A stretch of 64,000 nucleotides of DNA, from contig OY754471.1 of assembly GCA_963575645.1 (NCBI GenBank), positions 33,302,401 through 33,366,400 of the forward strand, in the 5' to 3' direction. The notes below the pieces were generated by a model. That model saw only the letters and a list, made by a program, of their open reading frames with translations, had not been told where the DNA came from and did no database searches. The position numbers and the translations under genes were made by a program. Shown here piece by piece: positions 24,774-64,000 of this stretch. This DNA comes from Xanthostigma xanthostigma (taxonomy: Eukaryota; Arthropoda; Insecta; Raphidioptera; Raphidiidae). Positions within the stretch are counted from its first letter, which is position 1, and every line of letters starts with the position of its first letter.

Positions 24774-26338
24774 AAAGGGTATAGCCGGATAGATATGGCG
24801 AGTTGGCCCCCAAATGGCAACCTATATCGAAACTTATGTTTTAATATCTACTTGATGTACGAACTCTTTTTATATATGTGTTACCCCCGCACTCCCCTTT
24901 GACCTTGAGTTATAGAGGAAAAACCAGCCTACCTACGACTATCGTTCAAAGAGACATATCTCGAAAACTAATTGAGCTAAAGAGGTAAAACCAACGCGAG
25001 CATTTAGGTAACCTTTAAGAGCACATTTTATATTTTTTTTGGATTTTTGCGAATAATTACACACAATATTAAAAAATAAATAAAAATATACCTAATTTTC
25101 AATTTTTCAGTGTTCTCTGTGACTTACAATCACTGAAATAATATATATTGTGGCACTTGATATGCACTACTACACATACAAATTGCGTTAGAAAAAAGTT
25201 GGTGCAACACTTCGAAAAAAAAAATTTTTGACGCACATCACATCATATAAGGATACAAACTTGACATAGTACACACATATGTAAATATTTTATTAATTAA
25301 AATTATTGTTAGAATGGATTGAATGAAAATATAAACAATTTTCAGGAAAATATTGATTTCATACGGCGCGGTATCGGGAATTATACGAGCGACAGCGAGT
25401 TCGTACTTGTTATTGCACTGCTTGTTATTTACGTGCTTAAGAGTTAAGACTGTTTATGTGTTTACACCACCACGTCATAATTTCATTAAATTAATTAAAC
25501 AAATTAGCGTCTTTGTCAGTTTTGTTAACTTTTTTATAACCAGTAACCTTACGAAGAGCCTTATTTTTTACACATATTATCTGACATTATTATAGATAAC
25601 AAAATAAAATAATAGCTACAAATAATAAATAATAGCTACTTCCGACAGAAAATGATGCCATGGTGGTGTAAATAAATAAAGTCTTAACTCTTAAGTACGT
25701 TAAGTTCGAACTCGATGTCGCTCGTATAATTCCCGGCACCGCACCGTATGAAATCAATATTTTCCTGAAAATTGTTTATATTTTCATTCACTCCATTCTA
25801 ACAATAATTTTAATTAATAAAATATTTATATATGTGTGTACTATGTCAAGTTTGTATCCTTATATGATGTGATGTGCGTCAAAAATTTTTTTTTTTTCGA
25901 AGTGTTGCACCAACTTTTTTCTAACGCAATTTGTATGTGTAGTAGTGCATATCAAGTGCCACAATATATATTATTTCAGTGATTGTAAGTCACAGAGAAC
26001 ACTGAAAAATTGAAAATTAGGTATATTTTTATTTATTTTTTAATATTGTGTGTAATTATTCGCAAAAATCCAAAAAAAATATAAAATGTGCTCTTAAAGG
26101 TTACCTAAATGCTCGCGTTGGTTTTACCTCTTTAGCTCAATTAGTTTTCGAGATATGTCTCTTTGAACGATAGTCGTAGGTAGGCTGGTTTTTCCTCTAT
26201 AACTCAAGGTCAAAGGGGAGTGCGGGGGTAACACATATATAAAAAGAGTTCGTACATCAAGTAGATATTTAAACATAAGTTTCGATATAGGTTGCCATTT
26301 GGGGGCCAACTCGCCATATCTATCCGGCTATACCCTTT
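24774..26338. mobile_element. 1.56-kb fold-back element
   Basis: AAAGGGTATAGCCGGATAGA at 24774 is matched in inverse ending at 26338. The arms run about 700 bp each (to about 25475 and from about 25660) with a loop of roughly 185 bp. The left arm has an extra tract near 25405-25435 absent from the right arm. No open frame spans the arms. No target duplication was identified. Confidence 0.7.
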
Positions 26339-27195: not shown

Positions 27196-27334
27196 TGTAA
27201 TAGCCGATTTAGTTTATTGTAAATTATGTAAATAATTATTGTACATCTTATGTAAGTAATAGTCATTCGTAGTTTGTATTAAGAATAAAGTTCAGTTTGA
27301 AAATAGCAATCTTGGTATAATGATATACATTACA
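27196..27334 (+). repeat. Gypsy left LTR (139 bp)
   Basis: TGTAAT...ATTACA with an AATAAA signal within AGAATAAAGTTC near 27285. It is unusually short for an LTR. Confidence 0.9.
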
Positions 27335-27411
27335 AATTGGCGACGAGGGTTAAAATAAAATTATTGAAAAGAAGTTTTAGGTATTGTCATTATAAGACTC
27401 ATTAGAGCAAT

Positions 27412-28698
27412 ATGGCTTTACATTTATCGTGTTTAAAAGAATTCAACATACAGACGGACAACTGGAAAACCTACACTGATAGATTAGAACAGTTTTTCAA
27501 GGTGAATAAGGTCGCAGTAGAAGACAAAGTACCGACAATTATTGCATTGGTTGGTAATGAAACATACGAATTAATGGTAGATTTGTGTAGTCCAACAGCC
27601 CCAAAAGACGTACCATATGACGAATTAATAAAAACAGTACAGGAACATTTACAACCGAAACCGTCATTTATTGCGGAGCGTATTAGATTGCGTAACAGAA
27701 GACAAAACGAAGGGGAAACAGTTGCACAATACTTAGCGGCGTTGAAAAATTTGGCAAAAACATGTGAATTTAAAAGTAAGGATAATTTAGAAGAAAATAT
27801 CAGGGATCAATTTATTTTCGGGTTGAAAAATGAATTCATCCGACAAAGTGTATTTGCGGAGAAAACACCATCTTATGGGAAGGTAACTGCATTAGCAATG
27901 GCACTAGAAGCAGCTGAAGTAAACGCAAGTATGAATTGGAACAGTAAAGGTGAAGAAGTATACAGGCTGAGAGAAACTGGCGCAAGCACTTCGAGGAATA
28001 AATCAAGAAATCATAGTAATTCAAGTTATCAAGGAGCGTCTTCAAAAGGTTCCAAGGGACAAGGCATGCCCAGCAGAGCAAATGGAGACAGCAGGAAGAA
28101 TGAAAAAGAAATGAAGTGTTCGTGCTGCGGTCGAACTAATCATTTGAAAGGTAACTGTCGTTATCGCGATTATGAATGTAATAATTGTGGTAAAAAAGGG
28201 CATTTGGCTAAGTTATGTAGAAGGGGTAGAGGTAATGAAACTAGTAGACAAAATGTATACGCTATGGAAAACAATCATGATGAAAATAATGATTCAAGTA
28301 GTGATTCAAATAATAATTCGGATATAGAAATTTATAATTTAGGAGAAATAGGGAGTAAAGATGCACCGTGGATGATAGAATTAAATGTAAATGGTATTAA
28401 TTTCAATATGGAGGTTGATACAGGATCGGGAATCTCGGAAATTTCTGAAATAATTTATTTGAAACATTTTTCTAATAGAGTTCTCGAAAGTACTGATTTA
28501 AAGTTGCATTTGTACAATGGAGCACAAGTAAAACCTGAAGGAAAACTAAATGTAGAAGTTAAATATAAGCAGAATAAAGCAAATTTAGAATTGTATGTAA
28601 TAAAAAATGCGGGTATTCCGATAATAGGACGAACATGGTTACGTAAGTTAAATATTGCATTGGAAATAATTGGTAGCGTAAGAAATTCTAAAGAAATT
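27412..28698 (+). CDS. gag-pro: Gypsy Gag-protease part of the split polyprotein
   Basis: The frame opens at ATG 27412, 77 bp after the left LTR. Residues 1-170 form the capsid-like region of Ty3/Gypsy Gag. Two CCHC zinc knuckles follow at residues 236-249 (CSCCGRTNHLKGNC) and 256-269 (CNNCGKKGHLAKLC), which bind RNA. An aspartic protease starts near residue 318, with the active-site DTGSG at 336-340 and a second strand IPIIGRTWL near residue 405. The coding sequence is interrupted at AATT (28695-28698) by the DIRS element; the raw frame then runs 34 meaningless codons into it and stops at 28800. The frame of the part after the insertion (33571 on) lines up with this one, so Gag and Pol were a single frame before the insertion. 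Confidence 0.9.
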
Positions 28699-28742
28699 GT
28701 TAGATCGAGTGAGCCCGCCGAAGGCGGCCGAAACTCGATCGT

Positions 28743-28867
28743 AATTATATCGATTGTTTCGCTCGAAGAGATCACTTGTAGTAGTTTCAATGTACGCTAG
28801 ATGGATCCACAGAGTTCAACTAAAAATAAAAATTGACATCTCTGATACACGCTTCCTTGTTTCATAA
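28743..28867 (+). repeat. DIRS left inverted terminal repeat
   Basis: From GATCACTTGTAGTAGTTTC to CCTTGTTTCATAA it is identical to the inverse of 33447-33545. A 44-bp outer extension (28699-28742) exists only on this side and folds into a hairpin (GATCGAGT...ACTCGATC). Confidence 0.85.
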
Positions 28868-28949
28868 ATTTCAAAGCCAAGAAGAGATCACGGGTGGGGT
28901 TACTTTATATATCTTTCTTATCGATCATCTGACAGAGCTAGGGATGGGA

Positions 28950-29064
28950 GTGATCTCTTCGAGCGAAACAATCGATATAATTACGATCGAGTTTCGCCCG
29001 CCTTTGGCGGGCTCACTCGATCTAACAATTATATCTCATGTTTCGCTCTCAGGATCACTTGTAG
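28950..29064. repeat. DIRS internal complementary region
   Basis: 28950-29026 is complementary to the left outer end (28699-28776), including its extension, and 29031-29064 to the right outer end (33537-33566). The two halves meet at AATT (29027-29030), the same four bases found at the insertion site. This is the arrangement expected if the region templates joining of the ends into a circle. Confidence 0.85.
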
Positions 29065-29239
29065 GATGTTTAGAGCAGGTCTAAACGCAAAATCTAAAAA
29101 CAACAAGTTGGTTTTTAATATAAAGAACAAAGCTTTATGTAGAAAAAAAAAATAACATAATAACATTCTCATACAAAACATATCTATATATATAAAAAAA
29201 TATATATCAAAAAATACATATTACATAAACTTAAGTATT

Positions 29240-30154
29240 TTATAATAATAAGGACTTGGCAAAGATCCTCTTGTCTTTAACAATTGGTCTGTTGTAAAAA
29301 TTGTTAAAGACTTTGGAAGCTTCTGACCAACCTGCTAGGTTTTTGATGATATTTAAATCAACGCCTTTGACAAAAGCTGCCGAAGTAGTCGCATGCCTAA
29401 TGCTGTGAGGTGCATACTCATTACTGATACCACACGCTAATAAGAAATGTTTTAACCATCTGCTCAAGGTATCTTTAGTAGCTGCCTTGTATGGTTTTCT
29501 TGTTGTTATGAACAGATTGTTCACGTTCTCTGTTAAAGTGGATGTGACTTCCAAATATCTTTTTAACACGGAGGCTACACAGAGGTTGGGCTTTTCGTCG
29601 AGTCTGGGGATCAACAACAGAGGCTGATGAGCCCCCGCCCTTGAAGTTTTTATACTATCGGGTATTTCAATCTCATATCCGTCCTCAACCTCTCTGATGT
29701 GGCTTCGCTTGATCAAAAATAAGGTCTGTTTGCGATGAGCAGTAACCAATGCTAGTAGCACAATCAATTTGCATGTCAGTTGTTGGAGATTTAAATTTCT
29801 CAAAGGGGACATTCCCTCGATTTTTTCAATAATTGGATCAAGGCTATAAATACGGTCGTATCTTGGTTTACTGGGTTTTAATTTAAGTATACCTTTTAAA
29901 AGTCGAGAAATTAAGGGGCTTTTTCCAATGTAGTCCCCGCATAGAAGGGATAATGCGGATCTGCAGGTATTAAGAGTCCCATGAGAAGCTCCCCTATGGA
30001 AACTTTCAGATAACCATTCCATAACCGCATCTACACTTGGTTCAAAAAAGTTATAATTTTTAGTCTTGCAAAAATTTACCCAATCCTTAATAGGCTTGCT
30101 GTATTGTTTCATAGTCTCATCGGTTACTGATCTCAGAAGAAGCTCTATTGACAT
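29240..30154 (-). CDS. DIRS tyrosine recombinase
   Basis: The 304-residue protein inserts the element by site-specific recombination, replacing an integrase. Catalytic residues of the tyrosine recombinase/phage integrase family are all visible: R141 (TAHRKQT), H250-x-x-R253 (APHSIRHATTS), W276 (LAGWSEAS) in the His/Trp position, and the nucleophile Y287 (NNFYNRP). The N-terminal 95 residues match a SAM-like core-binding domain. The start ATG at 30154 overlaps the end of the RT/RNase H frame (stop at 30145) by 10 bp, a compact arrangement usual in DIRS elements. The frame is complete. Confidence 0.92.
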   Translation of the reverse strand: MSIELLLRSVTDETMKQYSKPIKDWVNFCKTKNYNFFEPSVDAVMEWLSESFHRGASHGTLNTCRSALSLLCGDYIGKSPLISRLLKGILKLKPSKPRYDRIYSLDPIIEKIEGMSPLRNLNLQQLTCKLIVLLALVTAHRKQTLFLIKRSHIREVEDGYEIEIPDSIKTSRAGAHQPLLLIPRLDEKPNLCVASVLKRYLEVTSTLTENVNNLFITTRKPYKAATKDTLSRWLKHFLLACGISNEYAPHSIRHATTSAAFVKGVDLNIIKNLAGWSEASKVFNNFYNRPIVKDKRIFAKSLLL

Positions 30155-32150
30155 GTCATTAACTCCTCGTCTTTTGAAGGCTTCCCGGACAATCTCCCTG
30201 CCAACAAGGTCAGCTTGTTTGCCAGCGATTGTTGTATCTCCCTGTTAGAAGAAATTAGCAGATTAGTTGAAGGTTCAAAAGTCAGCGGGGGCGAATCTAA
30301 TAAAGACAGCCATAAGGGGTACCAGGCTTGAGTTCGCCAGTTTGGTACTATAACAACCCCGCAAGCTTGGTCCAATTTAATCTTGTTTAATGTTTTCAAA
30401 ATCAACGAGAAAGGGGGAAAAGCGAAAAACTTTAGTGGCCTCCAATCGATAGTAAAGGCATCAATACAAAACGCATGTGGGTCTTTATGCCATGAACAAT
30501 ACTTCTTATATTTAGCATTCTCTCTTGAAGCAAACAAATCTAAATCCATTTCTCCAAATTTAGTTACAATGTTATCGAATGCCCAAGGAGCTAGCTCCCA
30601 TTCGATATCAATATTTTTAACCCTTGACGCCAGATCTGCCTCTGTATTCTCCCTGGATGGGATGTATGTTGCAAAAATCCAGAGCTGACGTTGTTCACAC
30701 CATGACCAAATCTCGTAGGTTATTTTGTTTAAATGCTGGTATTTAGTTCCTCCCATCTTATTTAAATATGCGATCGCTGTTGAGTTGTCGATTTTTAACA
30801 GGATCTCGCATTGTGATAACTCGGAAGCAAAGGATTTTAACCCGTTAAAGGCCGCTAATAGTTCAAGGCAGTTGATATGAAAAACTTTTTCTTCTGCGGA
30901 CCACTGGCCATATTCCACCTTACCTTCACAGGAGGCACCCCAACCTGATAACGAAGCATCAGAAAAAATCGTCATTCTAAACCTGGACTGACGAATTGGA
31001 TTTTTTGTAACCATAATCTCTTTTTGCCACCAATTGAATTCCCTCTGCAACGAAGCTGGCAGCTTCATAATGGCATTAAAGTCATTACTGGACTTAGAAA
31101 GTGCTAGATATTTTTCTCGTTCGAAAGGTTTCGAATGAAACCAACCGTAATTTACTGCCGGACTCGCCGCCGTAATGTTACCAATAAACGTAGCGAATTC
31201 TCTAATTGAACAAAAATTAGTCTCTTTAAAAATATCTATTAGTTTACTAATATGATTTCTTTTCTTTTCCGTAAGTTCTAGGGTCATCGAAGATGAATTC
31301 AGAACAAAACCTAAAAATGACAAATCGTTGTAGGTTTGAGGGTGCTCTTTTTGGTATTTATAATGAAACCTAGTGATTCCAATAGCTGTCTGGAAACAGC
31401 GACGTTCTCGTCACAGCGAGATTCAGATTCCGCCATTAGTAACAAATCGTCGAGGTAAACCACAGACGTCCATCCCGAGCTTCTCAGGCGACTGATCACT
31501 GGTTTCAAAATCTTAGTGAATACCCAGGGAGCTATGCTCAAACCAAAGGGCAAACACACAAATTCATACAACTGTCTATTCCATCGAAATCTGAGAAATT
31601 TTCGATACAATTGGTGAATCGGGATTGTATAATACGCATCCTGTAAATCTAAATGGGCCATGAAGTAATTCTTGTTTATTAATTTTAATGTTGTTCGAAT
31701 ATCCTCCATCTTAAAGTGTTCCGTTTGGACAAAGGTGTTCAGCTCTTTAAGGTTGAGAATTAATCTCATTTTTCCATTGCTCTTGGGTACCAAGAATACC
31801 TTTGACAAAAATTGGCCCGCAACAGCGTGGCATTTGACTACAGCACCTGATTCTAGTAAGTTATTCAGTGCGTCTTGCATGTTAGAGCAATTTAAATTAT
31901 CAACAAAACCGAGAGGCTCCGTCAATTGTATTGGAGTAGATAAAAAAGGTATCTTATAGCCAGAAATTGCAGACAATATGGATTTGTCTGAAGTAATATT
32001 TGACCAGGCTTGAGTAAAAAAACTTAAACGACCTGCAGTAACACGTACCTCTACTTGTTGTTTGGATTGGTCGGATTGTTTGACCGGCTCTGGTTCCTGA
32101 TAGAACCGCGAACCCGCCCTTGAGGTGCTCGGTTGGATTGAACCAATCTC
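30145..32150 (-). pseudogene. DIRS RT/RNase H, one apparent 1-bp frameshift
   Basis: The RT part (clear from M at 31976; the same frame stays open upstream to about 32150, overlapping gag) has FLVPKSNGKMRLIL, LDLQDAYYTIPI and the catalytic YLDD (residues 174-177 from 31976). It stops at about 31311 in TTTTTAG. The next frame, one base away, continues without a start codon as SFLGFVLNS and carries RNase H acids at D122, E154, D179 and D230 (numbered from 31323), followed by a C-terminal extension with FAFPPFSLI that may correspond to the Dam-like methyltransferase region of DIRS elements (uncertain). A single missing T in the T5 run (31312-31316 on the minus strand) would account for the break, so this is either a recent mutation or a sequencing error. 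Confidence 0.85.
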
Positions 32151-33353
32151 GGGAACGGCCCCTTGTTGTGGCTCGTCTGTGGGTGGCCACCCCGAACTAC
32201 AGACGAGCTTCTCCAGTTTAAAAAACGGCGTGGTCTGTCAAATTGTTTTTTCTCTGCTGGTGTCTTTAAAGATAAACCAACTTTTTCTACCGCAGAGGCA
32301 ATCTTGATCCGCTTACCCAAGTCTTCACCGAACAAAAAATCATCAGTTTTTGATTTCTCCAGGATGATCTTATTCTTGTCATCGATGTATTGATACACTT
32401 GGAATTTCCTGGATTTGGACATCTGAAACATCAGTTCACAAAAGATGCTACTAGCATCACATAGTAGCTCTAGAAAGCTATCCTTTTCTATTGGCTCTTC
32501 GTCGTCTTTAAGAATGGCGCAAATAGACTGACCTAAAGCGGCCAAGCCGTGACCACATAAATTTTGATTGATCGACAAATATTTGTCTCTGGATTTTGCT
32601 GTCTTGTACAACAGCGGTAAAAGTTCAGGATTTAGTTCAGGTGCTTTTAAAGGGCAATTAGCCTTGTTAGAATACTTGGCTTCAAGCTCTATTCTAGTTT
32701 TTTGCTCCATCCCCGTGAAAATAATGTCCTTCCAGCACATGGCCAGGTCCGGGTGGAGATCCAGGGTCTTGTCAGACTGAAGGCGCTTGTCTACTTTCAG
32801 TAGATCGCGAGCCTTTACGCTCAGCTGAGTGGTTACTGCCTCCTCAGCGCTCGTCTTTTGAGACTCTTTTGATGCAACATTCAGTGTCGACGAGCTACTT
32901 TCCTCGACAGGTCTAACCGTCCCTGCGAGAGTAAGCTCGTCGTCAGGGCTCTCCGTCCCTGTATCGTCATCCTTGTCTGAGTCTACAAAAGCAAAAAGAT
33001 CTAGGTAATATCTAGTCGTCAGGTACGATTATCAACATCAAGGTGAAAAATCGCCCAAAGTTCACAAATAGTGAAGAAAAAATTTTTTACAGTGAGCAAA
33101 ACTGTAAAGTGATTTGTCAGATAGTACAACACAACACAGAATTGAGTTGCACACAAAACACAAAGAAAAAAAAATCAAGTGAAAAAACTTATTAGAGCAT
33201 AATGTGGCATTACATACCTCTTATATAACCCAATTTGGCATCAAGATTATCACTGACTGTCATAGGTAAATCAGCCATCAATTTTTGGTATTTAATAATT
33301 TTATTTCGATACAAATTCATTGTATCACAAGAATCACTTTTGCGTTTATTCAT
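32051..33353 (-). CDS. DIRS Gag-like protein, predicted two exons
   Basis: The unspliced frame 32051-32740 continues open upstream through an acidic Ser-rich stretch to about 33000, without a suitable ATG. I predict exon 1 33353-33218 (begins MNKRKSDSCDTMNLYR) and exon 2 32982-32051, joined over a 235-bp intron with donor GAG|GTATGT and acceptor TTTTTGCTTTTGTAG. The junction is phase 1 and keeps the frame. The C-terminus is Arg-rich and ends in an Asn/Pro-rich tail (RSNNPTNPNNK), as for DIRS-type Gag proteins that coat the RNA. It overlaps the RT frame, which lies in another phase. Homology is by position and composition only. Confidence 0.6.
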
Positions 33354-33446
33354 AATTTGTTGAAAAAAACAAATGTGTAAAAAAAAATATTCTGTAAAAC
33401 GTTGCAAACGAAAAAACGTGTCCGAACTCTAGGCGCACTAGAAACG

Positions 33447-33570
33447 TTATGAAACAAGGAAGCGTGTATCAGAGATGTCAATTTTTATTTTTAGTTGAAC
33501 TCTGTGGATCCATCTAGCGTACATTGAAACTACTACAAGTGATCCTGAGAGCGAAACATGAGATATAATT
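33447..33570 (-). repeat. DIRS right inverted terminal repeat
   Basis: Inverse of 28743-28867; it differs only in the outermost 30 bp (CTCATGTTTCGCTCTCAG against CGATTGTTTCGCTCGAAGAG). It should contain the element's promoter, as transcription starts from this side. Confidence 0.85.
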
Positions 33571-35802
33571 ACAATTAAAGAAATTTTACAAAAATATGAT
33601 TGCGTTTTTTCTGAAAAAGTGGGAAATTTTAAAAAGGCTTTAGTTCATTTAAATGTGCGCGATAATATCCATCCGATTTTTCATAGAGCACGGCCGGTAG
33701 CATTCTCATTAAGAAATAAAATTGAAAAAGAGTTAGAACGTTTGGTTCAAGAAAACATTATTTATCCGGTTGAATTCAGTGAATGGGCAACACCTATTGT
33801 TCCGGTTATAAAAAGCAATGGAAATATTAGAATCTGCGGAGATTTCAAAGTATCTCTGAATCCAGTTTTACAGGACGATAAGCATCCGATTCCTTTAATT
33901 GATGAACTATTTGCAAAATTACGAGGGGGTAAATTATTTACTAAATTAGATTTGTCTAGTGCGTATCAGCAATTAAGTTTAGACGAGGATTCGAAAAAGT
34001 ACACTACTATTATCACTCATAAAGGCTTGTACAGGTATAATAGACTGCCATTTGGACTCAAATGTGCTCCCGGGAAATTTCAACGTATAATGGAAGGGTT
34101 ATTAAATTTAGATGGAGTTATGGTATTTTTGGATGATATATTAATTACAGGAAATGATGATAAAGAACATATTATGAGCAGATTATTAAAGGTGGTAGAA
34201 ATTTTGAAGCATAATGGTTTAACGGTATCTAAAGAAAAGTGTCACTTTTTACAAAAATCTATTTCGTATTTGGGTTATATTATTGATGCAGATGGTTTAC
34301 ATACTTCACCAGATAAAGTAGAAGCTATGAGGAATATGCCAAGACCTAATTCGGTTACAGCATTAAAAGGGTTTCTAGGGTTAATAAATTATTATGGAAA
34401 ATTTATTAAAAATTTAAGTGTGGTATTGTCTCCACTTTACAATTTGCTAAAGAAAAACAAACAATGGTTCTGGTCAAAGGATTGTGAAAATGCTTTCAAT
34501 CGTATTAAAGAATTAATGTCTTCGTCCGATGTACTCGTACACTACGATCCTAATTTGCCGATCGTATTGGCATGTGATGCATCTGCATATGGTGTAGGAG
34601 CAGCTATATCGCACATTATGCCTAACGGCGACGAACGGCCTATTCAGTATGCGTCACGTACCTTATCACCAGCAGAATTTAACTATTCTCAGATAGATAA
34701 AGAGGCCCTAGCCATTATTTTTGGGATTAAAAAATTTCATAAATATTTATATGGGCAGCATTTTACGTTGATCACAGATCACCGCCCACTTTTATCAATT
34801 TTTAATCCACATAAAATGATACCTCAAATGATGGCTAGTAGACTGCAAAGATGGGCTATCATTTTGTCAGCATATGATTATAATATTGTTCATAAAAAGT
34901 CTGAATTAAATGGCAATGCTGATGGTCTGTCTAGAAATCCGTTAAAAATTATTGAAACTAAAAGAAATGATTTTGGCTATATAAATTTTGTAGAAGAAGA
35001 ATTTCCAATTAATCATGAAACTGTGGCTTCTGAAACTCAGAAAGATTTGATTTTGAGACAAATTTACAATTTCGTTTTAAAAGGGTGGCCAATAAAAATG
35101 TCGTCTGAAAAATTAGTTCCTTTCTGGAATAAAAGAAAAGAACTAAATTTAGAAAAAGGATGCCTTATGTGGGGTTATCGTGTCATCATCCCACCCAGTT
35201 TACAGTCACAGGTTCTAAAAGAAATTCATGCACCTCATATGGGGATAGTGAAGAGTAAATCTACTGCTCGATCATATGTTTGGTGGCCGGCATTAGATGT
35301 AGATTTAGAAAAATTAAGTAAAAATTGTCAAGCGTGTCAATCTGTACAATATTTACCGGAAAAATCTACATTGCATTCGTGGCCTTGGCCAGATAAACCG
35401 TGGTCTAGGTTGCATGCAGATTTTCTTGGTCCTTTTAATGGAAATTCTTACTTCGTAGTAATCGATGCCTATACTAAGTGGATGGAGGTGACAAAAATAA
35501 TGCAAACAAATGCTAAAAATACAATTTCATTTTTGAAAAATATTTTTTCACGTTTTGGTTTACCATTAACTTTTGTTACGGACAATGGCCAACCTTTGGC
35601 ATCGAATGAGTTTGCTTTATTTATGAAAAATAATGGTATTCGTCATATTTTTGTTCCGCCATACCATCCAAGTAGTAATGGACAGGCAGAAAATACAGTC
35701 AAAACAATAAAAATGGCTATGAAAAAAGCTATACAGATGAAAGAAAATATAGACGATTTTCTATGTCGATTTTGTTGCATTATAGAAATTGTAAACACGT
35801 AA
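33571..35802 (+). CDS. pol: Gypsy Pol: reverse transcriptase, RNase H, integrase core
   Basis: The continuation of the Gag-protease frame after the DIRS element. Counting from the ATG at 33619: RT with the catalytic FLDD (D172, D173) and PFGLKCAPGKFQR; RNase H with D320 (LACDASAYGVGA) and TDHRPLL; integrase with an HHCC zinc domain (HAPHMG...CQACQ) and the DDE triad D601, D655, E691 (35 residues between the last two). It converts genomic RNA to DNA and inserts it. The frame ends at 35802 because of an apparent single-base loss in the T run of CGATTTTGTTG (about 35769-35774); the integrase C-terminus continues in the next frame. Confidence 0.92.
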   Translation, partial: TIKEILQKYDCVFSEKVGNFKKALVHLNVRDNIHPIFHRARPVAFSLRNKIEKELERLVQENIIYPVEFSEWATPIVPVIKSNGNIRICGDFKVSLNPVLQDDKHPIPLIDELFAKLRGGKLFTKLDLSSAYQQLSLDEDSKKYTTIITHKGLYRYNRLPFGLKCAPGKFQRIMEGLLNLDGVMVFLDDILITGNDDKEHIMSRLLKVVEILKHNGLTVSKEKCHFLQKSISYLGYIIDADGLHTSPDKVEAMRNMPRPNSVTALKGFLGLINYYGKFIKNLSVVLSPLYNLLKKNKQWFWSKDCENAFNRIKELMSSSDVLVHYDPNLPIVLACDASAYGVGAAISHIMPNGDERPIQYASRTLSPAEFNYSQIDKEALAIIFGIKKFHKYLYGQHFTLITDHRPLLSIFNPHKMIPQMMASRLQRWAIILSAYDYNIVHKKSELNGNADGLSRNPLKIIETKRNDFGYINFVEEEFPINHETVASETQKDLILRQIYNFVLKGWPIKMSSEKLVPFWNKRKELNLEKGCLMWGYRVIIPPSLQSQVLKEIHAPHMGIVKSKSTARSYVWWPALDVDLEKLSKNCQACQSVQYLPEKSTLHSWPWPDKPWSRLHADFLGPFNGNSYFVVIDAYTKWMEVTKIMQTNAKNTISFLKNIFSRFGLPLTFVTDNGQPLASNEFALFMKNNGIRHIFVPPYHPSSNGQAENTVKTIKMAMKKAIQMKENIDDFLCRFCCIIEIVNT

Positions 35803-36365
35803 CTACGGGAATTAGTCCAGCTGAACTAATGTTCGGAAGAAATTTACGTACTAGATTAGATTTACTTTTGCCGCATAACAATAACAATAAAAAAATGAAA
35901 CAAATATCGACAAAGGAAACAGTCAGAGAAACGGTTAAAATTAATCAAGAAAAACAAAAAAAATTTAAAAGAGGGAAAGATAGAGATTTAAAAATTAATG
36001 ATAGTGTGTTAGTTCGAATGTATCAAAATAATAAACAATATTGGGAAACAGGATTGATTGTCTCAAAGATAGATTCACTCTCATACATCGTTAACGTGAA
36101 TGGTAAGAATGTTAAAAGACATGTTGACCAACTTATTCTTAATCATGCAAAACCTAAGCAAAAGCCAAGGTGTTACTTAGAACATTCTGATTTAAATAAT
36201 GAGCCTGACGGCACAGAAATTAAACCAAAGAAAAGTGATACTGAATTTGACTTCAGTGAAACCATAGTGTTTCAAGAGCTTTTAAAAGAGGAAAATCGTG
36301 ACAACCAAAGTCGCTATCCCAAAAGAGTAATCAAACCTGTTACCAGATACAAAATCAATATGTAA
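35763..36365 (+). CDS. pol: Gypsy integrase C-terminal part, shifted frame
   Basis: Continues Pol one base out of frame. The block HYRNCKHVTTGISPAELMFGR is the usual end of the integrase core, followed by VLVRMYQNNKQYWETGLIV and VKRHVDQLI, the C-terminal DNA-binding region of Gypsy-type integrases. The stop at 36363 lies 55 bp before the right LTR. Its own ATG at 35763 is not expected to be a real start; the protein is a piece of Pol separated by the frameshift. Confidence 0.85.
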   Translation: MSILLHYRNCKHVTTGISPAELMFGRNLRTRLDLLLPHNNNNKKMKQISTKETVRETVKINQEKQKKFKRGKDRDLKINDSVLVRMYQNNKQYWETGLIVSKIDSLSYIVNVNGKNVKRHVDQLILNHAKPKQKPRCYLEHSDLNNEPDGTEIKPKKSDTEFDFSETIVFQELLKEENRDNQSRYPKRVIKPVTRYKINM

Positions 36366-36420
36366 ATATAATATAAAAATTTAAAATATGTTTATTATGT
36401 TTCCATTTTAAGAAAGGAGG

Positions 36421-36637
36421 TGTAATAGCCGATTTAGTTTATTGTAAATTATGTAAATAATTATTGTACATCTTATGTAAGTAATAGTCATTCGTAGTTT
36501 GTATTAAGGCCTAGTTTATATGAGAGGCGTTCAACGCGCGTTGGCCCAACGCGCGTTGAACGCCTCTCATATAAACTAGGCCTAAGAATAAAGTTCAGTT
36601 TGAAAATAGCAATCTTGGTATAATGATATACATTACA
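36421..36637 (+). repeat. Gypsy right LTR, interrupted by a MITE
   Basis: Identical to the left LTR apart from the 75-bp MITE plus a TAA duplication. The insert lies immediately before the AATAAA signal. Confidence 0.92.
36508..36582. mobile_element. 75-bp perfectly palindromic MITE, TSD TAA
   Basis: Two perfect 37-bp inverted arms (GGCCTAGTTTATATGAGAGG... and its inverse) with one central C. TAA flanks both sides (36505-36507, 36583-36585). A 3-bp TAA/TTA target is the mark of PIF/Harbinger elements. The intact left LTR provides the empty site. Confidence 0.88.
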
Positions 36638-39261: not shown

Positions 39262-39838
39262 ACCGGCGTTAATATCCGCGGACAAAATATCCCCGACAAA
39301 ATATCCCCGGCCATAAAGGGGTATGCGATTTGTAATTCCGAGGTGAACGATAAAGGGGTATGCGAATTTTAATTCCGGGGGAACGATAAAGGGGTATGCG
39401 AATTGTTTCGCAGTGAAACGGGAAGGGTTAAAGGGGGAGTTTAAAAAAACAATTCCAGGGTGAACGATAAAGGGGTATGCGAATTGTTTCGCAGTGAATT
39501 CCGAGGTGAACGATAAAGGGGTATGCGAATTGTAATTCCGGGGTGAACGATAAAGGGGTATGCGAATTGTTTCGCAGTGAATTCCGAGGTGAACGATAAA
39601 GGGCTATGCGAATTGTAATTCCGGGGTGAACGATAAAGGGGTATGCGAATTGTTTCGCAGTGAAACGGGAAGGGTTAAAGGGGGAGTTTAAAAAAAACAT
39701 TTCCAGGGTGAACGATAAAGCAGTATGCGAATTGTTTCGCAGTGAAACGGGAAGGGTGAAAGGGGGAGTTAAAAAAAAAACAATTCCAAAGTGAACGATA
39801 AAGGGATATTTTATCGCGGATATTTTGTCCGAGGATAT
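39262..39838. repeat. Minisatellite flanked by inverted TATCC-type ends
   Basis: Tandem copies of GTGAACGATAAAGGGGTATG followed by CGAATTG, in three linker versions: TAATTCCGGG, TTTCGCAGTGAATTCCGAG, and TTTCGCAGTGAAACGGGAAGGG plus a TTAAAGGGGGAGTT block. The ends are inverted: left TATCCGCGGACAAAATATCC (about 39273) and right GGATATTTTATCGCGGATATTTTGTCC (about 39807-39833). The 148-codon frame on the minus strand (39428-39874) is a product of the repeats. Confidence 0.75.
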
Positions 39839-39874
39839 AAAGTCATAGAACCATTGTTTAACCGGTAAATTCAT

Positions 39875-46414: not shown

Positions 46415-46899
46415 TATTTAATAAGTTAACCTTGTGCCAAATTGCAACTTTTTAAAAACACTAGTTTTTTTACATTTTTTAGTGTCCCCACGCCAGAGGC
46501 TCGACCTCTGACTTATTGATCGTAGTATGTATATATATTTACACTCTAAATACTAGCTAAATCTCAAAATTGTTGTGATGTTTCACCATGAGTTCTTGTA
46601 CTGTAAAGTAGTATTATTTTTTCTAAAGAAACGGTGTAGGTACCGTTTTCTAAGAAAAATAGTATTGTCTCACTGCATCTGATTACGTCATTTTATCTCT
46701 TGTGTGCGAATGACATTGTGCATCTAGTATATATCTACCGCTGATTCAATGGAATTCCCCGTACGAGTTTCTTATAGTAATGGAATGAGTCTATTTTGAC
46801 ACTATTTAAGTCTAAAGCTATAAGGTCATGTCTATGTATTTATGTCCGTAAAGTTAGCAGAGCAGTTGCAGCAGAACAACTGTTTCTAGCACTGATTAA

Positions 46900-48734
46900 T
46901 TAAGGCTCATTAAAGGCTATTTAAATGCCCTATTGCGAAATTAAATGCTCCCATAGATACATATTGCAAAAATTCATGTTCTGCTAACTTAACGAAAAGT
47001 TAGCAGAGCACTAATGTTAAAAGTTAATAAAAATAACTTTATCATATATGAAAATTTAAGGCTCATTAAAGGCTAATTAAATGCCCTAGTGCGAAATTAA
47101 ATGCTCCCATACATATCGCAAAAATTCATGTTCTGCTAACTTAACGAAAAGTTAGCAGAGCACTAATGTTAAAAGTTAATAAAAATAACTTTAAAATATA
47201 TGAAAATTTAAGGCTCATTAAAGGCTATTTAAATGCCCTAGTGCGAAATTAAATGCTCCCATACATATCGCAAAAATTCATGTTCTGCTAACTTAACGAA
47301 AAGTTAGCAGAGCACTAATGTTAAAAGTTAATAAAAATAACTTTAAAATATATGAAAATTTAAGGCTCATTAAAGGCTAATTAAATGCCCTAGTGCGAAA
47401 TTAAATGCTCCCATACATATTGCAAAAATTCATGTTCTGCTAACTTAACGAAAAGTTAGCAGAGCACTAATATTAAAAGTTAATATAATTGACTATATCA
47501 TATATGAAAATTTAAGGCTCATTAAAGGCTATTTAAATGCCCTAGTGCGAAATTAAATGCTCCCATACATATCGCAAAAATTCATGTTCTGCTAACTTAA
47601 CGAAAAGTTAGCAGAGCACTAATGTTAAAAGTTAATAAAAATAACTTTAAAATATATGAAAATTTAAGGCTCATTAAAGGCTAATTAAATGCCCTAGTGC
47701 GAAATTAAATGCTCCCATACATATTGCAAAAATTCATGTTCTGCTAATTTAACGAAAAGTTAGCAGAGCACTAATATTAAAAGTTAATATAATTGACTAT
47801 ATCATATATGAAAATTTAAGGCTCATTAAAGGCTATTTAAATGCCCTAGTGCGAAATTAAATGCTCCCATACATATTGCAAAAAATCGTGTTTTGCTAAC
47901 TTAACGAAAAGTTAGCAGAGCACTAATGTTAAAAGTTAATAAAAATAGCTTTACCATACATGATAGTTTAAGGCTGATTAAAGGCTATTTAAATGCCCTA
48001 GTGAGAAATTAAGTGCTCCCATACATATTGCAAAAATTCATGTTCTGCTTACTTAACGAAAAGTTAGCAGAGCACTAATGTTAAAAGTTAATAAAAATGA
48101 CTATATCATATATGAGAATTTAAGGTTCATTAAAGGCTATTTAAATGCCCTAATGAGAAATTAAATGCTCCCATTAGATATGAGCGCCAATGGGTAAAGG
48201 AGCGGCGGCGGCGTAGTCGGCGGCGTGACCTTAGGAGCATTTTTTAATGATGGGCAGGATACAATAAAACAAAATATGTAGTTTAACAATCAGAATTATT
48301 ATTTATTTAACACAAATTATTTTTTTAAGAAAATGGTTTCTAGCCTAGAGCTAAAATATTTTTGGCACTTCGATTGGCAGAAAAAAATCAACGTTGTCAT
48401 AAAGTTCTAATAACAATTAACAAGAAAATAAATCTTAGAGAAAACAAAGATGTTTCTTTTAAGTCATAAAAAAATATAAAGTAGTCTTTAAAAATATGTT
48501 TTCAACATTTTTAGCTTTTATTTAAACATATGCCTTTTCGCTCGGCGCGCCGTTAAATTTTCACGGCGGCGGCGGGGGGGGGGAATCGTCGGCGGCGACG
48601 GCGCGCCGGCGCGGCGCTCATATCTAGTTCCCATACATATTACAAAAATTCGTGTTTTGCTAACTAAATGAAAAGTTAACAGAGCACTAATGTTAAAAGT
48701 TAATAAAAATAACTATATCATATTATATGAAAGG
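46900..48734 (+). repeat. Left array of the 152-bp unit
   Basis: The start of TTCTGCTAACTTAACGAAAA falls at 47131, 47282, 47435, 47587 and 47739, i.e. every 152 bp. Each unit contains the palindrome TGCTAACTT-AACGAA-AAGTTAGCA. Interrupted by a 452-bp element at 48175. Confidence 0.9.
48175..48626. mobile_element. hAT-like MITE nested in the Foldback left array
   Basis: Perfect 14-bp inverted ends TAGATATGAGCGCC (48175) and its inverse (ending 48626). The flanking GCTCCCAT / GTTCCCAT is an 8-bp duplication with one change and is part of the 152-bp unit. Both subterminal regions are extremely GC-rich (GGCGGCGGCG, GGCGCGCCGG) around an AT-rich middle. No coding frame. Confidence 0.8.
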
Positions 48735-51700
48735 GATTTTTAAATAGCCTTTAAAGAGCTTTAAATTTTCACACATGATATACCTATTATTATCAAATTT
48801 TAACATTAGTGCTCTGCAAACTTTTTGTTAAGTTAGCAGAATATGAATTTTTGCAATATGTATGGAAGCATTTAATTTCTCACTAGGGCATTTAAATAGC
48901 CTTTAATGAGCTTTAAATTTTCATATTATATGATATATTAATTTATATTAACTTTTAACATTAGTGCTCTGCTAACTTTTCGTTAAGTTAGCAGAACATG
49001 AATTTTTGCAATATGTATGGGAGCACTTAATTTCGCACTAGGGCATTTAAATAGCCTTTAATGTGCCTTAAATTTTCATATATGATAAAATTATTTTTAT
49101 TAACTTTTAACATTAGTGCTCTGCTAACTTTTCGTTAAGTTAGCAGAACATGAATTTTTGCAATATGTATGGGAGCATTTAATTTCGCACTAGGGCATTT
49201 AAATAGCCTTTAATGAGCCTTAAATTTTCATATATGAAAAAGTTATTTTTATTAACTTTTAACATTAGTGCTCTGCTAACTTTTCGTTAAGTTAGCAGAA
49301 CATGAATTTTTGCAATATGTATGGGAGCATTTAATTTCGCACTAGGGCATTTAAATAGCATTTAATGAGCCTTAAATTTTCATATATGAAAAAGTTATTT
49401 TTATTAACTTTTAACATTAGTGCTCTGCTAACTTTTCGTTAAGTTAGCAGAACATGAATTTTTGCAATATGTATGGGAGCATTTAATTTCGCACTAGGGC
49501 ATTTAAATAGCCTTTAATGAGCCTTAAATTTTCATATATGATAAAGTTATTTTTATTAACTTTTAACATTAGTGCTCTGCTAACTTTTCGTTAAGTTAGC
49601 AGAACATGAATTTTTGCAATATGTATGGGAGCATTTAATTTCGCACTAGGGCATTTAAATAGCCTTTAATGAGCCTTAAATTTTCATATATGATAAAGTT
49701 ATTTTTATTAACTTTTAACATTAGTGCTCTGCTAAATTTTCGTTAAGTTAGCAGAACATGAATTTTTGCAATATGTATGGGAGCATTTAATTTCGCACTA
49801 GGGCATTTAAATAGCCTTTAATGAGCCTTAAATTTTCATATATTTTAAAGTTATTTTTATTAACTTTTAACATTAGTGCTCTGCTAACTTTTCGTTAAGT
49901 TAGCAGAACATGAATTTTTGCAATATGTATGGGAGCATTTAATTTCGCTCTAGGGCATTTAAATAGCCTTTAATGAGCCTTAAATTTTCATATATTTTAA
50001 AGTTATTTTTATTAACTTTTAACATTAGTGCTCTGCTAACTTTTCGTTAAGTTAGCAGAACATGAATTTTTGCAATATGTATGGAAGCATTTAATTTCTC
50101 ACTAGGGCATTTAAATAGCCTTTAATGAGCCTTAAATTTTCATATATGATAAAGTTATTTTTATTAACTTTTAACATTAGTGCTCTGCTAACTTTTCGTT
50201 AAGTTAGCAGAACATGAATTTTTGCAATATGTATGGGAGCATTTAATTTCGCACTAGGGCATTTAAATAGCCTTTAATGAGCCTTAAATTTTCATATATG
50301 ATAAAGTTATTTTTATTAACTTTTAACATTAGTGCTCTGCTAACTTTTCGTTAAGTTAGCAGAACATGAATTTTTGCAATATGTATGGGAGCATTTAATT
50401 TCGCACTAGGGCATTTAAATAGCATTTAATGAGCCTTAATTTTTCATATATGAAAAAGTTATTTTTATTAACTTTTAACATTAGTGCTCTGCTAACTTTT
50501 CGTTAAGTTAGCAGAACATGAATTTTTGCAATATGTATGGGAGCATTTAATTTTGCACTAGGGCATTTAAATAGCCTTTAATGAGCCTTAAATTTTCATA
50601 TATGATAAAGTTATTTTTATTAACTTTTAACATTAGTGCTCTGCTAACATTTCGTTAAGTTAGCAGAACATGAATTTTTGCAATATGTATGGGAGCATTT
50701 AATTTCGCACTAGGGCATTTAAATAGCCTTTAATGAGCCTTAAATTTTCATATATGAAAAAGTTATTTTTATTAACTTTTAACATTAGTGCTCTGCTAAC
50801 TTTTCGTTAAGTTAGCAGAACATGAATTTTTGCAATATGTATGGGAGCATTTAATTTCGCACTAGGGCATTTAAATAGCCTTTAATGAGCCTTAAATTTT
50901 CATATATGATAAAGTTATTTTTATTAACTTTTAACATTAGTGCTCTGCTAACTTTTCGTTAAGTTAGCAGAACATGAATTTTTGCAATATGTATGGGAGC
51001 ATTTAATTTCGCACTAGGGCATTTAAATAGCCTTTAATGAGCCTTAAATTTTCATATATGATAAAGTTATTTTTATTAACTTTTAACATTAGTGCTCTGC
51101 TAAATTTTTGTTAAGTTAGCAGAACATGAATTTTTGCAATATGTATGGGAGCATTTAATTTCGCACTAGGGCATTTAAATAGCCTTTAATGAGCCTTAAA
51201 TTTTCATATATTTTAAAGTTATTTTTATTAACTTTTAACATTAGTGCTCTGCTAACTTTTCGTTAAGTTAGCAGAACATGAATTTTTGCAATATGTATGG
51301 GAGCATTTAATTTCGCACTAGGGCATTTAAATAGCCTTTAATGAGCCTTAAATTTTCATATATGATAAAGTTATTTTTATTAACTTTTAACATTAGTGCT
51401 CTGCTAACTTTTCGTTAAGTTAGCAGAACATGAATTTTTGCAATATGTATGGGAGCATTTAATTTCGCTCTAGGGCATTTAAATAGCCTTTAATGAGCCT
51501 TAAATTTTCATATATTTTAAAGTTATTTTTATTAACTTTTAACATTAGTGCTCTGCTAACTTTTCGTTAAGTTAGCAGAACATGAATTTTTGCAATATGT
51601 ATGGAAGCATTTAATTTCTCACTAGGGCATTTAAATAGCCTTTAATGAGCCTTAAATTTTCATATATGATAAAGTTATTTTTATTAACTTTTAACATTAG

Positions 51701-52565
51701 TGCTCTGCTAACTTTTCGTTAAGTTAGCAGAACATGAATTTTTGCAATATGTATGGGAGCATTTAATTTCGCACTAGGGCATTTAAATAGCCTTTAATGA
51801 GCCTTAAATTTTCATATATGATAAAGTTATTTTTATTAACTTTTAACATTAGTGCTCTGCTAACTTTTCGTTAAGTTAGCAGAACATGAATTTTTGCAAT
51901 ATGTATGGGAGCATTTAATTTCGCACTAGGGCATTTAAATAGCATTTAATGAGCCTTAAATTTTCATATATGAAAAAGTTATTTTTATTAACTTTTAACA
52001 TTAGTGCTCTGCTAACTTTTCGTTAAGTTAGCAGAACATGAATTTTTGCAATATGTATGGGAGCATTTAATTTCGCACTAGGGCATTTAAATAGCCTTTA
52101 ATGAGCCTTAAATTTTCATATATGATAAAGTTATTTTTATTAACTTTTAACATTAGTGCTCTGCTAACTTTTCGTTAAGTTAGCAGAACATGAATTTTTG
52201 CAATATGTATGGGAGCATTTAATTTCGCACTAGGGCATTTAAATAGCCTTTAATGAGCCTTAAATTTTCATATATTTTAAAGTTATTTTTATTAACTTTT
52301 AACATTAGTGCTCTGCTAACTTTTCGTTAAGTTAGCAGAACATGAATTTTTGCAATATGTATGGGAGCATTTAATTTCGCACTAGGGCATTTAAATAGCC
52401 TTTAATGAGCCTTAAATTTTCATATATGATAAAGTTATTTTTATTAACTTTTAACATTAGTGCTCTGGTAACTTTTCGTTAAGTTAGCAGAACATGAATT
52501 TTTGCAATATGTATGGGAGCATTTAATTTCGCAATAGGGCATTTAAATAGCCTTTTATGAGCCTT
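48735..52565 (-). repeat. Right array of the 152-bp unit, with 10-unit higher order
   Basis: About 25 units in reverse orientation. Private variants recur 1520 bp apart: CGCTCTAGGG at about 49946 and 51466, GGAAGCATTTAATTTCTCAC at 50082 and 51602, and AGCATTTAATGAGCC at 50421 and 51941. The array has therefore expanded by duplicating blocks of ten units. Confidence 0.88.
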
Positions 52566-52634
52566 AATTAATCAGTGCTAGAAACAGTTGTTCTGCTACA
52601 ACTGCTCTGCTAACTTTACGGACATTATGTATTT

Positions 52635-61299: not shown

Positions 61300-64000
61300 T
61301 AATGCTCGTTTTCCCCATACACATTGAAATCTGTGTTTTTGCATATTCTCTACTTGCAGCTCGAAAAACTGTTTAGAACTGCTAAAGTATTATGATGCGG
61401 CTGATTAGTGCCTACTATGGAAAGTTTCCTGCCTTCATAATATGTTCGAAATATTTAACCCTTTCTAGAGAAAATCGACATATTCTAATATATCTGTGTT
61501 TTCACGTATTCTTGACGTGCGGCTCGAGAAACTGTTTGGAACTGCTGAAGTATTATGATGCGGATGATTAGTGCCTACTATGGAAAGATTCCTGCCTCCA
61601 TAATATGTTCGGAATATTTAACCCTTTCTAAAGAAAATCGACATATTATAATATATCTGTGTTTTTACTTATTCTGGACGTGCGGCTCGAGAAACTGTTT
61701 GGAACTGCTGATGTATTATGACGCGGCTGATTAGTGCCTACTGTGGAAAGATTCCTGCCTTCATAATATGTTCGGAAAACTTAACCCTCTCTGGAGAAAA
61801 TCGACATATTCTAATATATCTGTGTTTTTACTTATTCTGGACGTGCGGCTCGAGAAACTGTTTGGAACTGCTGAAGTATTATCACGTGGCTGATTAGTGC
61901 CTACTATGGAAAGATTCCTGCCTTCATAATATGTTCGGAAAATTTAACCCTTTATAGAGAAAATCGACATATTCTAATATATCTGTGTTTTTACGTATTC
62001 TGGACGTGCGGCTCGACAAACTGTTTGGAACTGCTGAAGTATTATGACGTGGCTGATTAGTGCCTACTATGGAAAGATTCCTGCCTTCATAATATGTTCG
62101 GAAAATCTAACCCTTTTTGGAGAAAATAGACATATTCTAATATATCTATGTTTTTACGTATTCTGGACGTGCGGCTCGACAAACTGTTTGGAACTGCTGA
62201 AGTATTATGCCGCGGCTGATTAGTGCCTACTATGGAAAGATTCCTGCCTTCATAATATGTTCGGAAAATTTAACCCTTTTTGGAGAAAATCGACATATTC
62301 TAATATATCTATGTTTTTACGTATTCTGGACGTGCGGCTCGACAAACTGTTTGGAACTGCTGAATTATTATGATGCGGCTGATTAGTGCCTACTATGGAA
62401 AGATTCCTGCCTCCATAATATGTTCGGAATATTTAACCCTTTCTAAAGAAAAACGACATATTCTAATATATCTGTGTTTTTACGTATTCTGGACGTGCGG
62501 CTCGACAAACTGTTTGGAACTGCTGAAGTATTATGACGTGGCTGATTAGTGCCTACTATGGAAAGATTCCTGCCTTCATAATATGTTCGGAATATTTAAC
62601 CCTTTCTAAAGAAAATCGACATATTCTAATATATCTGTGTTTTTACTTATTCTGGACGTGCGGCTCGAGAAACTGTTTGGAACTGCTGAAGTATTATGAC
62701 GCGGCTGATTAGTGCCTACTATGGAAAGATTCCTGCCTCCATAATATGTTCGGAATATTTAACCCTTTCTAAAGAAAATCGACATATTCTAATATATCTG
62801 TGTTTTTACTTATTCTGGACGTGCGGCTCGAGAAACTGTTTGGAACTGCTGAAGTATTATGACGCGGCTGATTAGTGCCTACTATGGAAAGATTCCTGCC
62901 TTCATAATATGTTCGGAAAATTTAACCCTTTGTAGAGAAAATCGACATATTCTCATATATCTGTGTTTTTACGTATTCTGGACGTGCGGCTCGAAAAACT
63001 GTTTGGAACTGCTGAAGTATTATGTTGCGGCTGATTAGTACCTACTATGGAAAGATTCCTGCCTTCATAATATGTTCGGAAAATTTAACCCTTTTTGGAG
63101 AAAATCGACATATTCTAATATATCTATGTTTTTACGTATTCTGGACGTGCGGCTCGACAAACTGTTTGGAACTGCTGATGTATTATGACTCAGCTGATTA
63201 GTGCCTACTATGGAAAGATTCCTGCCTTCATAATATGTTCGGAAAATTTAACCATTTATAGAGAAAATCGACATATTCTAATATATCTGTGTTTTTACGT
63301 ATTCTGGACGTGCGGCTCGACAAACTGTTTGGAACTGCTGAAGTATTATGACGTGGCTGATTAGTGCCTACTATGGAAAGATTCATGCCTTCATAATATG
63401 TTCGGAAAATCTAACCCTTTTTGGAGAAAATCGACATATTCTAATATATCTATGTTTTTACGTATTCTGGACGTGCGGCTCGACAAACTGTTTGGAACTG
63501 CTGAAGTATTATGCCGCGGCTGATTAGTGCCTACTATGGAAAGATTCCTGCCTTCATAATATGTTTGGAAAATTTAACCCTTTTTGGAGAAAATCGACAT
63601 ATTCTAATATATCTATGTTTTTACGTATTCTGGACGTGCGGCTCGACAAACTGTTTGGAACTGCTGAATTATTATGATGCGGCTGATTAGTGCCTACTAT
63701 GGAAAGATTCCTGCCTCCATAATATGTTCGGAATATTTAACCCTTTCTAAAGAAAAACGACATATTCTAATATATCTGTGTTTTTACGTATTCTGGACGT
63801 GCGGCTCGACAAACTGTTTGGAACTGCTGAAGTATTATGACGTGGCTGATTAGTGCCTACTATGGAAAGATTCCTGCCTTCATAATATGTTCGGAATATT
63901 TAACCCTTTCTAAAGAAAATCGACATATTCTAATATATCTGTGTTTTTACTTATTCTGGACGTGCGGCTCGAGAAACTGTTTGGAACTGCTGAAGTATTA
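61300..64000 (+). repeat. 163-bp satellite array, continues past the window end
   Basis: Unit landmarks are CTGATTAGTGCCTACTATGG, AAGATTCCTGCCTTCATAAT, AATCGACATATTCTAATATA and GGACGTGCGGCTCGA. CTGATTAG-type starts at 61401, 61564, 61727 and 61890 give a 163-bp period; about 16 units are in the window. The first units are the most diverged. Variants GCCGCGGCTGATT and CTGAATTATTATGATG recur 1304 bp apart (8 units), a higher-order repeat. No coding content. Possibly heterochromatic or an array internal to a larger element. Confidence 0.92.

What the first reader, a model, noticed from the sequence alone, without database searches (positions are those of the whole stretch)
46842..52625. A 5.8-kb Foldback-type element built of opposed 152-bp arrays
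Seen: 9-bp duplication TATGTATTT at both sides, inverted tips, and arms composed entirely of a 152-bp tandem unit in opposite orientation, with no coding region. Known: Foldback elements of Drosophila have long inverted arms of tandem repeats and 9-bp target duplications and are related to Mutator-like elements. Inference: this is a Foldback/MULE derivative of a family I do not recognise; its arms would extrude a giant hairpin and are a likely hot spot for rearrangement.
Basis: partly seen in the sequence, partly recalled or inferred. Interest (0 to 1): 0.85.

Follow-up and report, generated by a model that had tools for sequence, protein, structure and literature searches.

The report
Foldback-type jumping DNA, tandem-repeat arms
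This is a jumping DNA element without genes, made almost wholly of one 152-letter repeat running in opposite directions from two matching tips; thirteen other two-ended copies lie in the same genome, and it is a new example of a kind of element already known from flies and nematodes.

Summary
The element spans 46842-52625 (5,784 bp) between identical 9-bp duplications, with near-identical inverted tips and opposed 152-bp arrays (TRF: 8.4 copies left, 25.2 right). In the same 623-Mb assembly the tip motif finds 14 two-ended copies including this one; 12 have perfect 9-bp duplications, one 8/9, one none. One copy sits in a LINE, and 8 of 9 fetched LINE relatives show the uninterrupted site. All 196 genome-wide hits to a unit motif lie in tip-bearing loci. 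Of 168 near-full units, 132 carry both a direct and an inverted copy of the tip motif (15 or more of 18), suggesting reiterated transposase-binding sites. No DNA-transposon transposase was found: 16 of 21 frames of 80 aa or more were scanned, and no MULE-domain hit lies within 164 kb of a tip. MULE parentage is likely from the 9-bp duplications but unproven. A separate coding MULE family with tandem-repeat ends exists in this genome. Verdict: a non-autonomous Foldback-type transposon family, nearest in design to Tetris and Tm1. A new member of a known kind.

The parts
46833..46841 (.). left 9-bp target-site duplication TATGTATTT
46842..46900 (+). left terminal domain, tip ATGTCCGTAAAGTTAGCAGAGCAG
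   Evidence: of the 28 ends of the 14 two-ended copies, 26 align over the 60 bp shown; L058 right and L059 left depart after about 20 bp
46900..48174 (+). left arm, 152-bp tandem array (8.4 TRF copies), up to the nested insert
48175..48626 (.). nested 452-bp high-copy insert, tips TAGATATGAGCGCC / GGCGCTCATATCTA, flanked by GCTCCCAT / GTTCCCAT; not part of the original element
48627..48735 (+). rest of the interrupted left-orientation unit, up to the apex
   Evidence: apex near 48732-48739, the same junction as copy L009 read in reverse
48739..52567 (-). right arm, 152-bp tandem array (25.2 TRF copies, 97% matches); a shift of 1,520 bp (10 units) gives a 594-bp exact run
52567..52625 (-). right terminal domain, inverted copy of the left tip
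52626..52634 (.). right 9-bp target-site duplication TATGTATTT

Best explanation
A non-autonomous, cut-and-paste DNA transposon of Foldback structure. Shown: conserved tips of about 60 bp; arms of a 152-bp tandem unit whose number differs between copies and between the arms of one copy; precise insertion with 9-bp target duplication; copies at different sites that share end-specific variants, a nested insert or an apex junction. Inferred: a transposase supplied in trans, most likely of the Mutator/MULE superfamily because of the 9-bp duplication, recognises the tip motif CGTAAAGTTAGCAGAGCA. Most units repeat that motif in both orientations, so the arms would be ladders of secondary binding sites. 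Unit number changes by unequal exchange or slippage within arms, including blocks of about ten units. The window copy belongs to a sub-family whose middle is missing, so its arms abut.
For: 12 of 14 two-ended copies have perfect 9-bp TSDs, L060 8/9, L059 none. Nine LINE relatives of the L015 target were fetched besides itself (40 matches listed; 40 of 62 candidates scored); 8 of 9 hold both flanks overlapping by exactly one GTATTATAA, and L074 also has one GTATTATAA but its last ~21 left-flank bases differ. All 196 genome-wide hits to a 34-bp unit motif lie in 18 of the 20 tip-bearing loci held. Tip motif in the reference unit at 17/18 direct and 16/18 inverted: 0 of 1,000 mononucleotide shuffles and 0 of 382 window blocks reach these scores. 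Over 168 near-full units, 166 have the direct motif at 15 or more of 18, 134 the inverted, 132 both. L015 and L016 share end-specific variants and a nested insert at different sites with different TSDs; L012 and L013 share an end-specific variant. The window and L009 share the apex junction in opposite orientation. Mean unit identity: same arm 0.956, other arm of the same element 0.941, other elements 0.934.
Against: No coding copy found. The nearest PF10551 hit to any tip is 164 kb away. The motif columns of the unit are not notably better conserved than others (the 34-column block ranks 32 among 152 circular windows), and 36 of 168 units lack one motif at 15 of 18. 9-bp duplications are also made by Merlin elements (recalled), and the Merlin-domain search did not complete. 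The centre of L011, the longest, looks like a patchwork of inserts, not a transposase gene.
Confidence: 0.8

Rival explanations
1. Same mobile Foldback structure, but mobilised by a transposase outside the MULE superfamily (Merlin, P/Galileo-like or other), as Galileo shows is possible.
For: No MULE-domain hit near any tip; tips ATGTCCG... differ from those of the coding MULE family L065/L066 (GGTGGCACGAC...); Galileo is a Foldback-like element with a P-element-type transposase (PMC3573991, abstract start in listings; PMC3688188, passages).
Against: The 9-bp duplication (12 of 14 perfect) is the size that PMC3169594 calls common for MULE transposases; Galileo makes 7-bp and P 8-bp duplications (recalled).
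Confidence: 0.25
2. A satellite array that happens to be inverted, with tips and duplication by chance or acquired later.
For: The unit is satellite-like in period and homogeneity (right-arm units 0.979 identical on average).
Against: 196 of 196 unit-motif hits are in tip-bearing loci; 12 of 14 perfect TSDs; empty sites.
Confidence: 0.01
3. Assembly artefact (a false inversion or collapsed/expanded array).
For: Exact unit numbers in near-identical arrays are hard to assemble; raw reads were not available.
Against: The same two-ended opposed structure recurs at separate loci with distinct TSDs, and the apex junction of the window copy is shared by the separate copy L009. The unit numbers remain open.
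Confidence: 0.03

Closest known systems
Tetris of Drosophila virilis (PMC4079207; abstract, section 10 and part 1 of 2 of section 16 read)
   Same: Foldback structure, long inverted ends with a ~220-bp tandem unit in variable number, variable middle, no conserved ORF, no autonomous copy found, duplications of 8-10 bp; 37 bp of the unit resembles the terminal domain.
   Different: Sequence relation not tested. Here the unit is 152 bp and most units carry the tip motif in both orientations; and all unit-motif hits lie in tip-bearing loci, whereas Tetris units also form longer satellite-like arrays.
Tm1 of root-knot nematodes (PMC3169594; abstract, section 9 and part 1 of 2 of section 11 read)
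   Same: Variable tandem motifs in the inverted ends, 9-bp duplications, short MITE-like copies, mostly non-coding.
   Different: Tm1 repeats are about 14 bp and its tips are asymmetric; one Tm1 class carries a Phantom-type MULE transposase; none was found here. Sequence relation not tested.
Foldback (FB) of Drosophila melanogaster
   Different: FB units are much shorter (recalled); no sequence comparison made.
Galileo (PMC3688188, passages read)
   Same: Long internally repetitive inverted ends; extra binding sites for the transposase's DNA-binding domain in the tandem repeats, tested there by EMSA.
   Different: P-superfamily transposase; duplication length differs (recalled).
FLYWCH+MULE family of the same genome (L065/L066)
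   Same: Ends built of tandem units (about 16 bp), a further 83-bp array, duplication CAATTTTTC (9 of 9) in L065 and 8 of 9 in L066, read by eye.
   Different: Has a 422-aa open frame with a MULE domain. BLAST of the tip, unit and core against copies of this family (L025-L029, L034) gave no match, and no tip hit lies near it.

Membership tests
Foldback-type transposon (structural class) | long inverted ends made of tandem repeats | tested here: met
   the short copies L057-L060 have at most a few units
Foldback-type transposon (structural class) | precise target-site duplication at dispersed sites | tested here: met
   12 of 14 perfect 9-bp, 1 of 14 with 8/9, 1 of 14 none; 8 of 9 fetched relatives show the empty site
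Foldback-type transposon (structural class) | unit number varies between copies and between arms | tested here: met
   near-full units left/right: window 7/24, L009 8/1, L010 4/8, L011 4/5, L012 13/12, L013 20/13, L014 8/3, L015 5/5, L016 18/6
Drosophila Foldback family proper | sequence homology to FB/NOF | not tested
   no FB sequence was on hand
Mutator-like (MULE) superfamily | target duplication of about 9 bp | tested here: met
   consistent but not exclusive
Mutator-like (MULE) superfamily | MULE transposase encoded between the same tips | tested here: not met
   none of the 53 PF10551 hits lies within 164 kb of any of the 38 tip hits; hits may be a lower bound
Merlin superfamily | IS1595-type transposase (PF12762) between the same tips | not tested
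   search unanswered five times

The most novel reading that the evidence does not exclude
The arms are built by the transposase-recognition signal itself: a palindromic copy of the tip motif became the seed of a 152-bp unit, and unit number grew because arms with more binding sites compete better for a transposase supplied by another element, so that parasites of a transposon can become pure ladders of binding sites with no middle at all (window copy, L009).
Probability: 0.25. Interest if true: 0.5.

Novelty: new member of a known kind. Interest (0 to 1): 0.36.

Why it matters
Why Foldback-type elements grow long repetitive arms is unsettled. Extra binding sites in the repeats were tested for Galileo and are described as untested for Foldback and Phantom (PMC3688188, passages). 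This family gives a series of copies from about 0.2 to 8.3 kb with the same tips, 1 to 24 near-full units per arm in the nine large copies, and the tip motif in both orientations in most units, in one assembly. That makes the idea directly testable by binding and excision assays.

Tried and rejected
Autonomous partner in the middle of other copies: not found. Inside the 14 two-ended copies there are 21 stop-free frames of 80 aa or more. I scanned 16 of them with Pfam; 4 in L011 and 1 in L016 were not scanned. The only family matches over a curated cut-off are the LINE in L011 (RT, endonuclease) and a Penelope-like RT with GIY-YIG in L013 ('Penelope' is recalled). L010 has a 175-aa frame in its centre without a match; it is shorter in L012 (91 aa). 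L011's extra 1.27 kb has minus-strand ORF pieces. One looks by eye like the end of a ubiquitin-specific protease, with no Pfam match and PDB sequence hits to chains named ubiquitin carboxyl-terminal hydrolase 8 only at E 0.5. That stretch is single-copy over its length, apart from a 187-bp 90% match and shorter fragments (40 of 42 candidates scored). The L015/L016 extra is largely another high-copy palindromic repeat (40 of 2,102 candidates scored).

The shared ~720-bp centre: diverged matches (68-69% and 81%) of the centre, and of the end of L011's extra (80-82%), fall together at several places, three of which are direct-repeat pairs 5.8-6.3 kb apart (40 candidates scored in each). That looks like LTRs of a retroelement. 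I infer an old solo-LTR-like insert; not proven. A 60-bp piece of the centre (484-545) recurs at many places at 87-90%, unexplained.

Single tips L061-L064, L017, L018: no second tip in the stretch held (best plus-strand match 7 or more mismatches of 25); no Pfam hit at E 0.1 in eight ORFs of L061-L064. ORFs of L017 and L018 were listed but not scanned. Four weaker two-mismatch tip hits were not fetched; the reversed-pattern control gives 4.

Selection on the motif within units: not supported.

Full report
What is there. The element runs 46842-52625 (5,784 bp) between two copies of TATGTATTT (46833-46841, 52626-52634); the first 90 bases of the two ends agree at 88 positions. TRF finds the 152-bp unit 8.4 times at 46900-48174 and 25.2 times at 48739-52567; arms of 1,218 nt are 96% complementary in many registers. 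The longest stop-free stretch is 64 aa. A 452-bp insert (48175-48626), with 14-bp inverted tips and an imperfect 8-bp flanking repeat, interrupts the left arm. It belongs to a high-copy family: 40 of 238 candidate places were scored, and the 39 others match at 93-98%. After it the left-orientation unit resumes and meets the right arm head to head at about 48732-48739.

Other copies. The window is C8:33302401-33366400 of a 623.3-Mb, 28-contig assembly. A 19-base tip motif with up to 2 mismatches has 38 hits (25 exact); the reversed-pattern control has 4. They form 14 two-ended copies (28 hits: the window, L009-L016, L019, L057-L060), 6 fetched single tips (L017, L018, L061-L064) and 4 two-mismatch hits that I did not fetch. 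Sizes run from 201 bp (L059) and 216 bp (L058) to 8,255 bp (L013). Twelve of the 14 have perfect 9-bp duplications, each with its own sequence; L060 has 8 of 9, and L059 none. One copy, L015, sits inside a LINE. Of the matches to its right flank (40 listed, 40 of 62 candidates scored) the best ten were fetched, one being itself. Eight of the nine others carry both flanks overlapping by exactly one GTATTATAA; L074 also has one GTATTATAA, but its left flank differs over the last ~21 bases. This shows precise insertion of the element with a 9-bp duplication.

No free arrays seen. A 34-base unit motif (up to 3 mismatches) has 91 forward and 105 reverse hits in the genome, control 0. The 20 tip-bearing loci that I hold (18 of them with hits) contain exactly 91 and 105. 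Of the 196, 7 hits lie at loci with a single tip (L017 2, L018 2, L061-L063 1 each), where a duplication cannot be read.

Mobility of lineages. L015 and L016 share end-specific base changes and the same nested sequence (1,812 bp, 99.5%), in opposite orientation and with different duplications; L012 and L013 share an end-specific change. The window copy and L009 share the same apex junction, also in opposite orientation, and their units are closer to each other (mean 0.959) than to those of other elements, L018 coming next (0.957 to the window, 0.948 to L009). This is what copying from a mother element gives.

Arrays. Mean unit identity over 168 near-full units is 0.956 within an arm, 0.941 between the arms of one element and 0.934 between elements; the window's right arm is at 0.979. 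Of 25 whole-unit shifts of this arm against itself, the shift of 1,520 bp (10 units) gives the longest exact match, 594 bp, then 17 units with 453 bp. Block duplication by unequal exchange or slippage is the simple reading.

Tip motif in the unit. The tip bases CGTAAAGTTAGCAGAGCA occur in the reference unit as a direct copy (17 of 18) and as an inverted copy (16 of 18). None of 1,000 mononucleotide shuffles of the unit and none of 382 blocks of the rest of the window reach these scores. Over 168 near-full units, 166 keep the direct motif at 15 or more of 18, 134 the inverted one, and 132 both; the lowest scores are 14 and 13. A test of whether these columns are better conserved across units than others was negative (rank 32 of 152). 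[quoted passage not shown] I infer, without a binding test, that the arms are ladders of transposase sites.

Centres. Four copies (L010, L012, L013, L014) hold a ~720-bp centre whole; in L011 it is split by a LINE; L015 and L016 match positions 188-717 of it; the window copy and L009 have none. The centre shows no recognisable gene: L010's 175-aa frame there has no Pfam match. Matches of 68-69% and 81% of the centre, and of 80-82% of the adjoining end of L011's extra stretch, lie side by side at several places, three of them direct-repeat pairs 5.8-6.3 kb apart, which suggests an old LTR. L011 has a further 1.27 kb with broken ORFs of uncertain kind.

Which transposase. PF10551 (MULE) has 53 hits in the genome, 34 of them on contig C10. 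None is nearer than 164 kb to a tip. A coding MULE family in this genome (L065, L066) has a 422-aa frame with a MULE domain (E 1.6e-12) and, about 0.6-0.7 kb upstream in a separate frame, a FLYWCH hit; by eye 8 of the 31 FLYWCH hits of the genome lie within 1 kb of a MULE hit. FLYWCH plus MULE is the Phantom combination as described for Tm1 (PMC3169594). Its ends are ~16-bp tandem units, it has an 83-bp array on one side, and its duplication is 9 of 9 in L065 and 8 of 9 in L066 by eye. It does not share tips with the 152-bp family. It shows that MULEs with tandem-repeat ends live in this genome, not that they move this element. The Merlin test did not complete.

Comparison. By structure this is a Foldback-type element; its nearest published designs among the papers that I saw are Tetris (PMC4079207) and Tm1 (PMC3169594). 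Plant MULEs with tandemly duplicated ends that amplify well are also on record (PMC3310237, abstract and section 18). Five paper searches listed no paper that I recognised as describing this family, but they searched words, not sequence, and no repeat library was available; so the family may be catalogued elsewhere. I file it as a Foldback-type transposon by structure, and leave its superfamily open with MULE the favourite.

Noticed in passing
window 39271-39852: An 83-bp tandem array with ~15-bp repeats at both sides, about 77-89% identical over the longer matches to the array of the coding FLYWCH+MULE family L065/L066: a second tandem-repeat MULE relic 7 kb from the finding.
   Followed up: partly
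L065:2907-7290 and L066:3199-6227 (contigs C4 and C3): MULE family with FLYWCH and MULE domain hits, inverted ends of ~16-bp tandem units and a variable 83-bp array; copies 99.8% identical over 2,610 bp at different sites, so probably recently active.
   Followed up: partly
G000 contig C10, about 8.8-16.3 Mb: 31 of the 53 MULE-domain hits of the genome cluster in this 7.5-Mb stretch; cause unknown (heterochromatin or a special chromosome?).
   Followed up: no
window 27196-36637: Ty3-type retroelement with identical end pieces (100% over 88 and 55 bp), split by a DIRS-like element with tyrosine recombinase and reverse transcriptase on the minus strand (29240-33028) (family names recalled).
   Followed up: no
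window 24774-26338: Another large palindrome: arms of about 700 bp, 94% alike, 166 bp apart.
   Followed up: no
window 48175-48626: High-copy insert with GC-rich ends (runs of GGCGGC) around an A+T-rich middle, 14-bp inverted tips and an imperfect 8-bp duplication.
   Followed up: partly
window 61329-64000: A 163-bp tandem array of 16.4 copies running to the window end.
   Followed up: no
window 3754-6048 (minus): 764-aa open frame with a weak DUF7869 match (E 3.7e-5, below the curated cut-off), possibly from another mobile element.
   Followed up: no
L064:4838-4862 (contig C5): A single tip that matches the family over 25 bp (24 of 25) but has a different sequence behind it; no second tip in the 5.2 kb held. 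It may mark a relative with another interior.
   Followed up: partly
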